DNA from: a virus
Length of the DNA: 44,085 nucleotides
IMG/VR virus record: IMGVR_UViG_3300028840_001346
Location: 1 to 44,085 of that record
Reading direction: 5' to 3' (one strand)
In this document: piece by piece, positions 34,976-41,492 of the stretch
Numbering within the stretch: position 1 is the first letter of the stretch
Layout: each line of letters begins with the position of its first letter
The notes under the pieces: generated by a model
Database searches by the model: none
Seen by the model: only the letters and a program-made list of their open reading frames with translations
Told to the model about the DNA's origin: nothing
Position numbers and translations under genes: made by a program

Positions 34976-35134
34976 CTATTTGGTCTCTTTGGCGTGAGCG
35001 GCGGAGAACCCGTGGCTATCATCAACCTCGCCGGTGCGCATCCGGAGCTGGATTTCTAGCTCCTCTTCTGGCGTTTCCGGAAGCTCTAATTCAACCTCCT
35101 CGCCATCGACCGTCCTGTACTTGCGCTTTTTCAT
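34976..35134 (-). CDS. 52-residue acidic hypothetical protein
   Basis: The ATG at 35134 overlaps the stop of the head-morphogenesis gene as ATGA. It begins MKKRKYRTVDGEEVELELPE and has an acidic, helical rest (EEELEIQLRMRTGEVDDSHG). Translational coupling to the ADP-ribosyltransferase-like gene is notable, and an immunity or assembly role is possible but unproven. The non-coding repeat array follows its stop. Confidence 0.65.
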   Translation of the reverse strand: MKKRKYRTVDGEEVELELPETPEEELEIQLRMRTGEVDDSHGFSAAHAKETK

Positions 35135-37440
35135 GTCATGACCATCCATTCCGCCTCATTCCCAGCGGATCCATTGTGCCAATGCTTCATTTTGTGGCCA
35201 TTGAGAATCCTCTCAACTGGCACGTCCTCGACAAGCACCTTGCCACCGCGGGCAAATGACTCTGCGATGCTCTTGTCTGTGGTCCACGACTCGATGGCCC
35301 CCGGGTGCTTGTACTCTTGCACTATACCACGATAAAGCCGAATTGTCTTGACATTCTGCTTTTTGAATTCTGCCTGGGTTTTCTTCCACATTCTCCTTGC
35401 GGTTTGCCGTGCCCCACGGAGTTCCTGGGCTGAATATTGCCATGGATCACGCACAAATGGGATGCCATCTAGCCCAAACTCCTCTTTGGCGCCCCACTTG
35501 AGGGCCACCGAACTACGCGTGTTGGAACTCTCTACCCAGCTATCAACGGCATCAAACTCGATCCCATCTTTGGGGTCAATCGGCCTATTGCCTCGCCTCG
35601 ATACATCAAACGGCGACTTGGCCTGGCCCTTTTTTCTTGACTCGACCTTGGCAATCTCGAAGTCCTTCACGGCCTTTTGCAGCTTGGCTTTTTCGGCTGC
35701 GAGGGCTTTCTTTTCGGCGAGTTCAAATGCCGAAAGGGGCTTAGGCGATGGTTTTGGAGCAACCTTTGGCTTCTTGGCCTCGGCAGCCTTCTTGGCCGCT
35801 TTCTTGGCCTCAATCTCGGCTTTGACCTTTGCCTCCGCCGCTGCGAGTTTCGCCTTCTGTTCCTTGGCCGCTTTCTGCTCGGCAGCCTTCTTGGCCTTGG
35901 CCTCGGCCAGCTGCTTTTCTGCAGCTGCGAGTCTCGCTTTGGCCTCTGCTGCGGCTTTATCGTCTGCGGCCTTCTTGAGAGCGGTTCGCTTGGCTTTCGC
36001 CTCAGCCGCCTTTGCCTTGGCTTTGGCTGTCTTGGCTTCGAGGGCTGCTGTTCTAGCCTGGACCTCGGCCAGTGTCGGCTTAGGCTTTGCTTTCGGCTTC
36101 GGGGGTGGCTTCGGAGCAGCTTTGATCGGCTTGATGGGCCCGGCCTTTTTGGTGGGCACCTTGGCCGCAACGGGTTTGGGAACTGCAACAGCACCCTTCG
36201 GGGCGAATGGCGCTGGTTTTGGCGCTGGAGCCGGAGGCTTGGCCTTGCGCTTCAACAGCCGCTCCTCGGCAGCGCTCTCTCTGGCGACTCCGGCCTTGGC
36301 ACCATACCGCTTGCGCGCCGCAGCCCGCTTGGCTTTCATCTTCGCCAAGATGGCCTTTTTGTCCTCGGGTTGCGCAGGGATGCCTTCTAGCACGGGTTCG
36401 GCCGAACATCGGCAGTTGAAATCGTGCCCAGGGTGCCCAGTGTCTGCTGGAGGGTCATCCCAGCTGTAAACATTGCCTTCCTTGAGTCGATGCGTGGGCC
36501 GCACCCGTTCATCTCGGCTTGTGCGCCAAGTGTACTGCTCAACCCCTAGGCCGGTCTGACGCATTTGCGTCAGGGCACCGTTGAGCTTGTTCGTCTGGTC
36601 ACGAGCGATGAATCTAGCGCGCCACATTGAAACATCGAATTGCTTCTTGATGTCCTGCGCGATGACCTCCGGCCTTGCGCCGGCCTGAACATTGCGCCGC
36701 ACGCTATCCATCACCTTGCCGACGTAATCGCCGGAGAGCGACTTGATGAGCGAGACATTCTGCGAGAGATGCAGGTCCAGGATGGACTTCAGACCGGCCT
36801 CATTTGGGAACGCATCAAAGCCGATCATGCGCCGGATTTGCCGCGCTATCTGCATCCGATTGAACTTGCTTGTCTCACCAGAATAGCGCGAAACCAGCTG
36901 GTCAAGGGCCCGAAGATGCGTGTTGTCCATCCGCACCGTGACTTGATCCTGGATGCCCTGGATGACGGCAGAGACATCGGCCACATCCTTTTTCAGCGGA
37001 TCATTGTCCAAGCCTCGGCCGTGGACGGTCTCGTGACACAAACGACACAGCCACCGGACTTTGGTGGCCTTGTTGTAGTCACTATGGTGAGCATCAACCT
37101 TGCCGGCCTTCCCGCAGCGCTGGCATTTGCTGGGTCGCTTAACCTCGCCCCGTCGCATGGCGTTGCGCAGGAGGTCATTCTCACGGCGCTTGGTATCCTC
37201 GTGTAGCTCATCCCCACGCAAGCCGCTCTCTCGAGAGATGCGTCCCAGTTCCGGAACAAGCAATTCGTCGATGTCTGTCCGGATGGCCTTGATGATTCCC
37301 ACAAGTGCCGAGACGTAGCCGCGCTCTGCGGCGAGCGGAAATCGCTGGATGGTCGGCCGCTTGAGGCGGAACGGCTTTTGGCCCATCTCCCTGGCTAGGT
37401 TTTGGTGCGTCTCGACGAAATTGGGGAGAAATCCTGGCAT
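35131..37440 (-). CDS. head morphogenesis (gpF-like) protein with HNH-like insert and ADP-ribosyltransferase-like tail
   Basis: 769 residues, ATG at 37440 with AGGTG upstream. Parts: (1) residues 98-142, a zinc/HNH-like insert with Cys106, Cys109, His118, His119, Cys132, Cys135, His136 and His140 (CQRCG, AHHSDY, WLCRLCHETVH); (2) about 250-350, the Mu gpF/SPP1 gp7 core (RFIARDQTNKLNGALTQMRQ, GHPGHDFNCRCS); (3) about 370-610, a Lys/Ala/Pro coiled linker; (4) about 690-769, an ADP-ribosyltransferase-like domain with the R of LYRG, SWTT and the E-x-E of GNEAEW. The protein is probably packed in the virion and may be delivered into the cell. Enzyme activity is inference from motifs. Confidence 0.82.
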   Translation of the reverse strand: MPGFLPNFVETHQNLAREMGQKPFRLKRPTIQRFPLAAERGYVSALVGIIKAIRTDIDELLVPELGRISRESGLRGDELHEDTKRRENDLLRNAMRRGEVKRPSKCQRCGKAGKVDAHHSDYNKATKVRWLCRLCHETVHGRGLDNDPLKKDVADVSAVIQGIQDQVTVRMDNTHLRALDQLVSRYSGETSKFNRMQIARQIRRMIGFDAFPNEAGLKSILDLHLSQNVSLIKSLSGDYVGKVMDSVRRNVQAGARPEVIAQDIKKQFDVSMWRARFIARDQTNKLNGALTQMRQTGLGVEQYTWRTSRDERVRPTHRLKEGNVYSWDDPPADTGHPGHDFNCRCSAEPVLEGIPAQPEDKKAILAKMKAKRAAARKRYGAKAGVARESAAEERLLKRKAKPPAPAPKPAPFAPKGAVAVPKPVAAKVPTKKAGPIKPIKAAPKPPPKPKAKPKPTLAEVQARTAALEAKTAKAKAKAAEAKAKRTALKKAADDKAAAEAKARLAAAEKQLAEAKAKKAAEQKAAKEQKAKLAAAEAKVKAEIEAKKAAKKAAEAKKPKVAPKPSPKPLSAFELAEKKALAAEKAKLQKAVKDFEIAKVESRKKGQAKSPFDVSRRGNRPIDPKDGIEFDAVDSWVESSNTRSSVALKWGAKEEFGLDGIPFVRDPWQYSAQELRGARQTARRMWKKTQAEFKKQNVKTIRLYRGIVQEYKHPGAIESWTTDKSIAESFARGGKVLVEDVPVERILNGHKMKHWHNGSAGNEAEWMVMT

Positions 37441-37997: not shown

Positions 37998-38221
37998 TAG
38001 AGCCCCGCAAGCGACTTGGCTGGAGCGCCGCGCAAGCGCATCTCGCTAGTGAGCGAATCGATCCATTCCAGACAAACCTTGATCGTGTCGGAGTCCCCCT
38101 TGCGCTTGGCAGAGACCAACACCACAATGTAATACTCGCGCGCGCGCAACAAGTCGGCCCCGTCCATCCCAGCGATGGCTACATGGTTGGGCTTGGCGAT
38201 GGGCGGTATCGGACTAGCCAT
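37997..38221 (-). CDS. hypothetical protein next to portal
   Basis: 74 residues, ATG at 38221 with GGAG 7 nt upstream, inside the last codons of the portal gene. VAIAGMDGADLLRAREYYIVVLVSA and a helical second half are visible. It may be a small portal-associated protein; no family recognised. Confidence 0.6.
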   Translation of the reverse strand: MASPIPPIAKPNHVAIAGMDGADLLRAREYYIVVLVSAKRKGDSDTIKVCLEWIDSLTSEMRLRGAPAKSLAGL

Positions 38222-39704
38222 TCTCGGGCTCCTCGGTTGGTGGGGCTTGTGGTACCTGTGGCACTTGTGGCACTTGCGGAATCAGTGGTTGCGGCTCCGG
38301 CTCGGGTTCCATCTCCTCCATCTTGGCAGCCTCGGCCCGTTTTTCCATGTCCAATACAGTGTCGGTCGAGTAGGCATCCCCGCCGAACCTAGACATTGCC
38401 ACTTCCTCGGGGTCCAGCACTCCGTCTGCAAGGTAGACAGCGTCGGCCTCGGCCTGGGTTTTGCGCGTCTCGGCCTTTTGCTTGTCGGTTTCCTGCCACA
38501 ACGGGTCGAAGCCGTAGCTCCAGTTTTCGGGCTCCTTGCCTTTGGTTGGACCATCCTTCGAAGCAAAGAGGATCTCCAGAATACGGTCGAGGGCCGGCCT
38601 CACCGTCTCTTCTTGCTTGGCTCGAATCTGATCGTAGAAGAACCGGATATCGCTCTCTCCGGTGGCATTGAGCCCGGCTGGGGACTGCCCAAACAGCAAC
38701 GTCGCAGGCATCTCCGCGGCCTCCGCGACTCGGAGCATCAAGCGATCGATGGTCTCTGGCAATCCGCCCATGGGGGTCTGGGCCCGGAAAAAATCCTCAT
38801 CCTCTGCATCGATCGGAATGGCGCGGGCCACCGAACGGCACAAATCCATTGCAACCATCCGGTCGAGGACCAGGTTTCCCTCGCTTTGCATGATGGCGTC
38901 CGCTAGGCCCTTCATTTTCATGACGGCCTGAGAGAAATCCTGGAGCAGATGGGTCACCGCAGACCACGAAATGCCGTAATCCTCCAGCGTTGTCCGCATC
39001 GCCGTGTAGATCGAATCAGCCCAGCCGCCGTTATATTGCATCCTCCGGTGGCTGGTTCGGACACCGTCAATTCGAATCACACGACTAGCGTGGACAGGCC
39101 AGCCATCTGTCACATCAGTGGCGTGTTGCGGCTCCGGCCGAATCTGGTACTCATCGGGCTCGCCGTTCTCCTCATCATCGAGGTCCCCGGTGACCACCTT
39201 GTTGATTTCGCATTCCCACCTGTCATAGACTTTCAAAAATTTGAGCTTTTTAATGTTGTCTAGATTGAGCGGCTCTGTCCGGTCGGAACCGTCGTCAACG
39301 GACATATAGATGAGCGCGCCACCGTGGACACGGGCCCAGGTGATGGCATCGGTGAGCCTAGCCTGGACGCTCAAGTCATCCAGAGCCTGCGAGACTTGCT
39401 TGGCCGTGATCAGCTTGTCGCCTGTGCTCGCCTCTGTCTTGACCTCCTCGCCCTCAACCGAGTCATCCACTTGAAGCGTTATCCACTCCCTGGTCATCTC
39501 GCGGGCCGGAAGCCTGGCGATTTTCTGGGCGGTGTGGTCGCTAGCATACCAGGAGTCAAACTCCTCGCGCGAGCCCTGGACTAGCGCCGGAGAAATCTGA
39601 GTCCCCGTGCGCTTGTCGCGAGATTGACCCAAGCCCGTGATGGTGCTTTTCCAACCATCTTGGCGCCTTGCTCTGGTCTCGGCTTTGTCTTCGGTGTCAA
39701 CCAT
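38214..39704 (-). CDS. portal protein (DUF1073-like)
   Basis: 496 residues, ATG at 39704 with TAGGAG 8 nt upstream. ARLPAREMTREWITLQ, ITWARVHGGALIYM, HASRVIRIDGVRTSH and MPATLLFGQSPAGLNATGESD are the DUF1073 portal pattern. The C-terminus has Glu/Pro and PQVPQVPQVPQ repeats. It forms the ring at the unique vertex, through which the DNA is packaged. Confidence 0.9.
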   Translation of the reverse strand: MVDTEDKAETRARRQDGWKSTITGLGQSRDKRTGTQISPALVQGSREEFDSWYASDHTAQKIARLPAREMTREWITLQVDDSVEGEEVKTEASTGDKLITAKQVSQALDDLSVQARLTDAITWARVHGGALIYMSVDDGSDRTEPLNLDNIKKLKFLKVYDRWECEINKVVTGDLDDEENGEPDEYQIRPEPQHATDVTDGWPVHASRVIRIDGVRTSHRRMQYNGGWADSIYTAMRTTLEDYGISWSAVTHLLQDFSQAVMKMKGLADAIMQSEGNLVLDRMVAMDLCRSVARAIPIDAEDEDFFRAQTPMGGLPETIDRLMLRVAEAAEMPATLLFGQSPAGLNATGESDIRFFYDQIRAKQEETVRPALDRILEILFASKDGPTKGKEPENWSYGFDPLWQETDKQKAETRKTQAEADAVYLADGVLDPEEVAMSRFGGDAYSTDTVLDMEKRAEAAKMEEMEPEPEPQPLIPQVPQVPQVPQAPPTEEPENG

Positions 39705-39715
39705 CTCGTCAGCTC

Positions 39716-41122
39716 CTACATCGTGGCCAGTTTTCGGAGTTTGGCCAGATTACTCGTAGAACACAACATGTGCGCGAGGGAAAGGGCATCCACGTCATCG
39801 TCGTGGCTCGCATCCGGAAAGCCTTCGAGGATGGCAAAAAACGCATCATTCCAAGGGCCCCTAACCACGCGCACGTTGCCAGCTTCGGCCTGCGAAGACA
39901 CCGGCCCTGCATAGGTCACCTTATCCTTGCTGGCCTTGCGGGTCTTGACCGTGTAGCGGGACAGCATCCGAACGAAATACTGCGCATCAGACTTGCCGGC
40001 CGCACCTGGGTCTTCCCAGAAGCCTATCTTGCATTTTTGGCCATCGTAGGCAGCCGTGTTGAGAATGGCCCTTTCGACCCCAAGCGGTCCTTCGCGAAGT
40101 CGCACCACATGCTCGATGACAAAGGAGTCATCTCGCATCCTGCAATAGCGGACTCCCACAGTCCAGTCTGGATCTTTGTTTTCGGGATTCGGCTTCGTTG
40201 CCGCCTTGTCCCAGCACCGATATCGGTCAACTACGTTGCGCGCTGGCGAGCGTTCAATCATCTCGAACATAGACCGGCGGAAATAGAGTCCAGCCGCAGG
40301 CTTGATCAGCCAGTTTCCGCCAAGAAGCCTGGCCCGCTCAACCCGGGGCATCGCGAGAAGCTTGCTCTTGTACTTCGGATCAGCGTCAGTGAGGGCTGGA
40401 TTATCATCGAGGCTTGAGGCGATGAACGTGATTGAATTGGGGGCCTCTGGGTCCTGTTCACAGATGTGGGGGGCCTTTTCCCGGAGTTCCTCCTTGCTGT
40501 CGGCCCAGATAAGCTCGTCATCCGAGTCACGAACGAACCACCGGATTACCCCAGAGCGCTCTGGTATCGGATAGCCGTCCTCGCCTATCCACCACGCAAT
40601 GAGACCAGTCCCGTTGCGATAAAGGAAGGAATCAGGGTCAGGATTGCACGCCGCGCGAACGTATGGCTGGACTCCGCAGGATGATCTAGCTCTAGCGAAC
40701 AGACCCCAAAATTGTTCCTCCTCAAATTGCTCCAGCTGATCGAAAATGATCAGCACATATTGCTTGGACAGATGAGTCGCGATGTCCTTAACGTATTGGA
40801 GATGTGAGAACTCGATGCGGGCCCCCGATGGAAACCGCCAGTCCATCTTGGGCGATTCGCGCGGGACACCGCCCACAGCGGGAAACAGATTGTGGGCCTC
40901 GCGCCAGATGGATCCCGGGCCTGTGAGCTGAGTCGACATGCGCCGGAAAACGACCGCGCCAAACTGCGGGTTGCCGACATGCCTCATTGCCTCCAGAGTA
41001 AGCGCAAAGGTTTTCCCTCCTCCAGCGGCTCCGCCGAAAATGACGATATCCGCAGAGCTGGAAAGGAAGGCCTCTTGTTTGGGCTGGGGCCGGATGACCC
41101 GGGCTGGGCTACTTTCGGCCAT
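39716..41122 (-). CDS. terL: terminase large subunit
   Basis: 468 residues from the ATG at 41122, overlapping the small subunit by 14 nt. Walker A is GAAGGGKT (31-38). Walker B is LIIFDQLEQF (124-133), where Gln129 stands in place of the usual catalytic Glu. Nuclease motifs are RCWDKAATK and HDDDVDALS near the C-terminus. It packages DNA into the prohead and cuts concatemers. The Walker B change is unusual and deserves a check against relatives. Confidence 0.92.
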   Translation of the reverse strand: MAESSPARVIRPQPKQEAFLSSSADIVIFGGAAGGGKTFALTLEAMRHVGNPQFGAVVFRRMSTQLTGPGSIWREAHNLFPAVGGVPRESPKMDWRFPSGARIEFSHLQYVKDIATHLSKQYVLIIFDQLEQFEEEQFWGLFARARSSCGVQPYVRAACNPDPDSFLYRNGTGLIAWWIGEDGYPIPERSGVIRWFVRDSDDELIWADSKEELREKAPHICEQDPEAPNSITFIASSLDDNPALTDADPKYKSKLLAMPRVERARLLGGNWLIKPAAGLYFRRSMFEMIERSPARNVVDRYRCWDKAATKPNPENKDPDWTVGVRYCRMRDDSFVIEHVVRLREGPLGVERAILNTAAYDGQKCKIGFWEDPGAAGKSDAQYFVRMLSRYTVKTRKASKDKVTYAGPVSSQAEAGNVRVVRGPWNDAFFAILEGFPDASHDDDVDALSLAHMLCSTSNLAKLRKLATM

Positions 41123-41492
41123 TGTCTGGCAGGTAGACCACGACATCCAGACCGCGCTCTCCCACTTGCTCAATCTTGTCGACTTGTCCAAGCCATTGCT
41201 TTCCGAGCCAGATCATCATGGTCTTGTCTCCGGCCTCGGCTGATTTCCATTGACGCCGTCGCAAACTGCATTTGCCACGGAGGCTCTTGCGGGCGATGTA
41301 GGCCTCTGCAGTCTCGCCGTGGACGCGCTTGCACGCTCGCGATAGTGTGTCGTCACTGATGCTAAGGACCTCCGCAATTTCGTCTCTGGTGCAATGAATG
41401 GCACAAAGGGCATCAACTTTTTCCCAGTCGATCTCCTTGAGTGGTCGGCCGCGGCCCCTTTTCGGGCCGGCTTTCTTCTTGGCTTTGGTCAT
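41109..41492 (-). CDS. terS: terminase small subunit
   Basis: 127 residues from the ATG at 41492, overlapping the methyltransferase stop as ATGA. A basic N-terminus (KAKKKAGPKRGRGRPLK) leads to a helix-turn-helix (ALCAIHCTRDEIAEVLSISDDTLSRAC), then RRRQWKSAEAGDKTMMIWLGKQWLG, typical of small terminases that recognise the packaging site. Confidence 0.85.
   Translation of the reverse strand: MTKAKKKAGPKRGRGRPLKEIDWEKVDALCAIHCTRDEIAEVLSISDDTLSRACKRVHGETAEAYIARKSLRGKCSLRRRQWKSAEAGDKTMMIWLGKQWLGQVDKIEQVGERGLDVVVYLPDNGRK

What the first reader, a model, noticed from the sequence alone, without database searches (positions are those of the whole stretch)
35131..37440. Head-morphogenesis protein ending in an ADP-ribosyltransferase-like domain
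The C-terminal 80 residues show the R / S-T-T / E-x-E arrangement (LYRG, SWTT, GNEAEW) of arginine-type ADP-ribosyltransferases, joined by a 240-residue Lys/Ala/Pro linker to a gpF-like core. A virion-borne copy could modify host targets on entry or capsid proteins during assembly. The coupled 52-residue gene just after it could be a partner or inhibitor.
Basis: partly seen in the sequence, partly recalled or inferred. Interest (0 to 1): 0.75.

Follow-up and report, generated by a model that had tools for sequence, protein, structure and literature searches.

The report
Phage head protein carrying ADP-ribosyltransferase and partner
An uncultivated contractile-tailed phage makes a head protein whose tail end looks like an enzyme that tags target molecules with ADP-ribose, and the gene touching it encodes a small acidic protein that always accompanies this enzyme in the related phages found, which fits a toxin with its own antidote.

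Summary
ORF 35131-37440(-) encodes a 769-aa MuF/gpF-like protein (PF04233 1.2e-25) with a Lys/Ala/Pro linker and a C-terminal domain carrying YRG / SWT / ExE. No Pfam or NCBIfam model recognises that domain; PHROG_4776 (function unknown) hits weakly. I found five other MuF proteins with the same ~135-aa C-terminal domain (31-39% identity), in four viral records and a Thioalkalivibrio MAG. R704, S718 and E764 are invariant in them. E762, which makes the motif 'arginine-type', is Gln in all five, so the family is [Q/E]xE and arginine specificity is uncertain. AlphaFold models and profile searches point consistently but weakly to the ADP-ribosyltransferase (ART) superfamily. In all six loci the next gene starts at an ATGA overlap and encodes a homologous 52-66-aa acidic protein, seen nowhere else in 154 fetched loci. 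The ART-partner pair sits behind divergent MuF cores. Best reading: a new ART family in the known MuF polymorphic-toxin class, packaged in the head and injected, with a co-translated immunity protein. Architecture, conservation and coupling are shown; activity, packaging and immunity are inferred.

The parts
35131..37440 (-). MuF/gpF-like minor head protein with C-terminal ART-like domain, 769 aa
   Evidence: ORF; PF04233 1.2e-25; PHROG_324 head morphogenesis 1.6e-64
37018..37197 (-). HNH/zinc endonuclease-like segment (residues 82-141) inserted in the N-terminal part of the MuF protein
   Evidence: PHROG_2340 endonuclease 1.3e-16; absent from a Klebsiella phage homologue; tblastn relatives are mostly annotated endonucleases or hypothetical proteins, including one at the phage K DNA polymerase gene
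36400..36717 (-). MuF core domain (residues 242-347)
   Evidence: PF04233; TIGR01641 SPP1 gp7 1.9e-24
35584..36387 (-). Lys/Ala/Pro-rich linker (residues 352-619)
   Evidence: Composition and pI 10.6
35134..35538 (-). ART-like domain (residues 635-769), shared with five other MuF proteins
   Evidence: Alignment A6; AF2 model; profile comparisons
35326..35334 (-). YRG (residues 703-705), putative region-1 Arg704
   Evidence: Invariant in A6 and A3; partly by construction of the DNA pattern
35281..35289 (-). SWT (residues 718-720), putative STS-like region 2
   Evidence: S718 and T720 invariant in A6, partly by construction; middle residue W or Y
35149..35157 (-). ExE (E762-A-E764), putative region 3; E764 candidate catalytic Glu
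   Evidence: E764 invariant in A6; position 762 is Gln in the other five
34976..35134 (-). Translationally coupled 52-aa acidic partner (pI 4.9), candidate immunity protein
   Evidence: ATGA overlap; homologues at the same place in 6/6 MuF-ART loci; leave-one-out HMM E 6e-7 to 1.4e-19; none elsewhere in 154 loci

Best explanation
The gene encodes a MuF-type minor head protein whose C-terminus is an NAD-using ADP-ribosyltransferase effector. The MuF part places the protein in the head near the portal (inferred from family knowledge), the long basic linker tethers the effector, and the enzyme enters the host with the DNA, as T4 Alt does. There it ADP-ribosylates a host macromolecule (inferred). 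The acidic 52-aa product is translated by ATGA coupling, probably binds the basic ART domain, and keeps it inactive in the producing cell (inferred). The pair behaves as a toxin-immunity cassette found behind divergent MuF backbones.
For: Shown: MuF core behind a portal/terminase module in a phage with tail sheath and baseplate genes. Same domain on five other MuF proteins. R704, S718, E764 invariant, plus W635 and a W-x2-G-x2-G stretch outside any search pattern. AF2 core pLDDT about 85-92; 9 of the top 11 PDB hits are KptA or CNFy. A relative's model, pLDDT 88.5, returns IcmQ, Vis ART and ParT in its top 5. Weak sequence hits fall on ART families: DRAT 0.011, 2kxi 0.081 with LYRG aligned, Lmo0066 0.6. 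Partner in 6/6 loci. ART local scores 208-286 with the window against 30-199 for MuF cores. L141/L142: ART dN/dS 0.31, so the domain is under purifying selection. MuF-ART fusions and small downstream genes are established (PMC9503650, PMC5576092, PMC11699363).
Against: No Foldseek match reaches E<=0.001 and TM-scores are low. No curated ART model reaches its cut-off. The window protein ends five residues after E764, shorter than its relatives. Partner function has no direct evidence; no complex was modelled. No integrase or resolvase was found in the window, while Jamet et al. tied MuF toxins to temperate phages. A neighbouring small gene evolves as fast as the partner, so its fast evolution does not prove immunity.
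Confidence: 0.7

Rival explanations
1. The ART is a T4 Alt-like takeover enzyme rather than a toxin: it modifies host transcription or translation on entry without killing competitors, and the small protein is a chaperone or packaging adaptor rather than an antidote.
For: Phage ARTs are enriched in myoviruses and often packaged (PMC9503650); the window phage has a tail sheath and no integrase was found.
Against: A dedicated, always-coupled small acidic protein next to a basic ART domain resembles the toxin-immunity layout of MuF toxins (PMC5576092). The shared pair behind divergent MuF cores also fits a toxin cassette.
Confidence: 0.22
2. The C-terminal domain is a degenerate, non-catalytic ART relative used as a structural or binding module.
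For: The middle residue of the STS-like motif is W or Y; the window copy is truncated after ExE; the first position of [QE]xE varies.
Against: R, S and the second E are invariant across six divergent copies; ART dN/dS is 0.31 between L141 and L142.
Confidence: 0.07
3. The motifs are chance similarity on an unrelated C-terminal extension.
For: No curated ART model passes its cut-off.
Against: A 135-residue homologous domain recurs on five other MuF proteins; hhalign score 34.9 against a best of 18.3 for 60 shuffles; structure hits favour the ART superfamily.
Confidence: 0.01

Closest known systems
MuF polymorphic toxins of temperate phages (Jamet et al. 2017, PMC5576092)
   Same: MuF core in the packaging module, C-terminal effector extension, small gene directly downstream
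   Different: Their toxins are mostly from Firmicutes and their phages; this ART domain matches no Pfam or NCBIfam model; host unknown; no integrase found in this record
Bxa, MuF-type ART of a Bacteroides stercoris prophage, with immunity proteins Bsi and BAH (PMC11699363)
   Same: MuF-type N-terminus, ART C-terminus, adjacent small immunity gene
   Different: Here one conserved ATGA-coupled 52-66-aa protein lies next to the ART; I did not compare the ART sequences directly
[quoted passage not shown] 2022, PMC9503650)
   Same: ART fused to MuF, expected head packaging, myovirus
   Different: I could not assign this domain to either family; membership not tested
PHROG_4776, standalone phage proteins (e.g. 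mycobacteriophage LeBron gp117)
   Same: YRG / SWT / A-x2-FA / ExE arrangement; hhalign E 6.8e-9 between the two families
   Different: Standalone, function unknown in PHROGs, not fused to MuF; the coupled partner was not found in those loci

Membership tests
MuF polymorphic toxins | MuF domain | tested here: met
   PF04233 1.2e-25, TIGR01641 1.9e-24
MuF polymorphic toxins | Gene next to the portal in the packaging module | tested here: met
   Terminase 39716-41191, portal 38214-39704, a few small ORFs, then MuF, then DUF2213 protease; not strictly the very next ORF
MuF polymorphic toxins | C-terminal toxin domain | tested here: inconclusive
   ART-like domain by motif, fold and homology; toxicity untested
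MuF polymorphic toxins | Small downstream gene (<150 aa) | tested here: met
   52 aa, ATGA overlap, homologues in 6/6 loci
MuF polymorphic toxins | Temperate phage | tested here: inconclusive
   No PF00589 or PF00239 match in the window; integrase present in the record of L083
ADP-ribosyltransferase superfamily (R-S-E group) | Conserved region-1 Arg, STS-type Ser, [QE]xE | tested here: met
   R704, S718, E764 invariant; 762 is E here and Q in five relatives; middle residue of the STS-like motif is W/Y
ADP-ribosyltransferase superfamily (R-S-E group) | ART fold (split beta-sheet) | tested here: inconclusive
   AF2 strand and helix order compatible; top PDB hits mostly ART superfamily but no E<=0.001
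ADP-ribosyltransferase superfamily (R-S-E group) | NAD binding and transferase activity | not testable with these tools
   Needs biochemistry
Arginine-specific (ExE) ARTs | ExE conserved in the family | tested here: not met
   ExE in the window only; QxE in L083, L141, L142, L143, L146
Alt/VIP2 or N4-ART | Sequence membership | not tested
   No family models for these were compared

The most novel reading that the evidence does not exclude
A previously undescribed MuF-linked ART family whose substrate-specificity position switches between Glu and Gln, paired with a new family of very small co-translated inhibitors. The pair moves as a cassette between divergent phage head proteins and acts on a host target not yet known for phage ARTs.
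Probability: 0.45. Interest if true: 0.7.

Novelty: new variant of a known kind. Interest (0 to 1): 0.58.

Why it matters
MuF-ART fusions are known, but very few have a tested activity or a tested antidote. This family offers a compact pair (about 135 aa enzyme, about 52 aa partner) that is easy to test. The natural difference (Glu or Gln) at the specificity position would let one ask directly how phage ARTs choose targets. The partner family, if an inhibitor, would be a marker for finding more such cassettes.

Tried and rejected
Direct searches with the C-terminal 150 aa found no relative in viral contigs, genome contigs or the phage records. Portal and terminase searches gave no close relative of this phage. 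A genomes search in 398 species of one phylum and 47 of one order found only the known Thioalkalivibrio locus; a plasmid search found none. Four of the seven records from the last DNA pattern scans encode this ART; L144, L145 and L147 are chance hits. The HNH insert was considered as an intron or intein remnant: a 60-76-residue in-frame insert looked too small for either, so I treat it as a domain insertion (inference). Fast evolution of the partner was considered as evidence for immunity and set aside, because a neighbouring gene shows the same.

Full report
Observation. The ORF 35131-37440 (minus) encodes 769 aa. Residues 242-347 match PF04233 (1.2e-25) and TIGR01641 (1.9e-24); PHROG_324 head morphogenesis covers 22-391 (1.6e-64). 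The linker 352-619 is 29% Ala, 24% Lys, 10% Pro. The C-terminus carries LYRG, SWTT and GNEAEW. The 52-aa gene starts at an ATGA overlap with the MuF stop. The phage has a contractile-tail module (tail sheath 3.8e-94, baseplate wedge 5.9e-48).

First searches for the C-terminal domain. Pfam and NCBIfam give nothing for the C-terminal 150 aa (DRAT, an ART, at 0.13 for the last 89 aa). PHROG_4776, function unknown, hits at 9.6e-4. Direct searches in viral contigs, genome contigs and phage records found no relative. A degenerate DNA pattern for YRG...SWT...ExEW found L020/L022, copies of one standalone ORF, with the three motifs in frame. tblastn with that protein found 71 Mycobacterium and Gordonia phage records; those listed are annotated as hypothetical proteins. 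A second pattern gave 25 stretches; most carry the motifs in an open frame. The motifs in pattern-fetched proteins are conserved partly by construction; the A-x2-FA segment and upstream tryptophans are not.

Independent homologues. From 80 loci holding terminase relatives, 17 MuF ORFs were recovered by iterated HMM. One, L083 9365-10921, carries a C-terminus homologous along its length to the window's. A pattern from these two (YRG-x8-G-x2-E-S-[WY]-T) gave L141, L142, L143 in viral contigs, all three true, and L146 in a Thioalkalivibrio MAG, the one true hit of four in genome contigs. All six proteins have a MuF core; L141's lies across the ends of its contig. In alignment A6 identity to the window is 31-39%. 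Invariant outside the search pattern are W635, K, E, G, G, R, TQ, D, A, F, R, W-x2-G-x2-G and E764.

The catalytic motif. R704, S718 and E764 never vary. Position 762 is Glu in the window and Gln in the other five (GQQWEY, GEQYEY, GEQFEY, GEQSEW, GAQSEY). The published rule links ExE to Arg acceptors and QxE to Asn, Gln or Cys (PMC3000352).

Fold. AF2 of the window domain has low confidence in the N-terminal helices and about 85-92 in the best core blocks (mean 66). Its PDB hits are led by CNFy and KptA (9 of the top 11), with IcmQ and SdeA mART further down, all at E>=0.27. KptA is an ART-superfamily member (PMC9503650); that CNFy and IcmQ contain ART-like domains is from my own knowledge. 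A relative (L039, pLDDT 88.5) returns IcmQ, Vis ADP-ribosyltransferase and ParT in its top 5, E>=0.11. By sequence, the A6 profile's best PDB hit is 2kxi at 0.081, with LYRG aligned; I believe from memory that this is NarE, whose R7 is needed for activity (PMC4440719). Two A6 members hit DRAT, best 0.011. Each item is weak; they agree.

The partner. In all six loci the next gene starts at the ATGA overlap and encodes 52-66 aa. Leave-one-out HMMs, each built from the other five, pick it as the best hit in its own locus at 6e-7 to 1.4e-19. Across 154 loci, 1.52 Mb and 26,466 ORFs, the partner profile finds only these loci and their duplicates (next 0.082). The partners are acidic (pI 4.8-5.3) and the ART domains basic (8.8-11.3). 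tblastn with the window's and L146's partner found nothing in 50,697 phage records. No Pfam family matches above cut-off.

Modularity and selection. Local alignment scores with the window are 208-286 for the ART but 30-199 for the MuF core (L146 30, L083 70), so the pair sits on divergent backbones. Between L141 and L142 the ART has dN/dS 0.31, the MuF part 0.16 and the partner 0.63; the next gene shows 0.72. The ART is under purifying selection; the partner's speed is not diagnostic.

Insert. Residues 82-141 match PHROG_2340 endonuclease (1.3e-16). A Klebsiella phage MuF homologue lacks this segment. tblastn relatives are mostly annotated endonucleases or hypothetical proteins, including a feature at the phage K DNA polymerase gene and one inside a baseplate wedge gene. 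None of the MuF-ART relatives was seen to carry it, by reading their sequences.

Known work. Jamet et al. define MuF toxins and report small ORFs after 89.4% of them (PMC5576092). Iyer et al. report ARTs of two families fused to MuF (PMC9503650). Bxa is a MuF-type ART with two immunity proteins (PMC11699363). The kind is known; this ART family and its small partner are not recognised by the libraries searched.

Limits. Host unknown. The record may be incomplete; no integrase or resolvase was found in it. Activity, packaging, injection and immunity are inference.

Noticed in passing
window:37018-37197 (-): HNH/zinc endonuclease-like segment inserted in frame in the N-terminal part of the MuF protein, related to phage homing-type endonucleases.
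   Followed up: partly
window:34777-34962: Exact 83-bp tandem repeat (2.2 copies) with hairpins just downstream of the partner gene; RNA fold z = -2.64; no match in phage records. Could be a terminator or an exchange site.
   Followed up: partly
L098:6508-7887: MuF protein with an intein-type segment at the conserved Cys motif (PF14890 5.9e-6, below its cut-off).
   Followed up: no
L093:11823-13433: MuF protein with a different C-terminal extension containing THNHPSG-x-SF, resembling a JAB-type metallopeptidase by eye; suggests polymorphic C-termini in this phage group.
   Followed up: no
mycobacteriophage LeBron gp117 (L030) and relatives: PHROG_4776 proteins, now 'hypothetical', carry the YRG/SWT/ExE arrangement; the model of a relative (L039) gives weak ART-superfamily fold hits.
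   Followed up: partly
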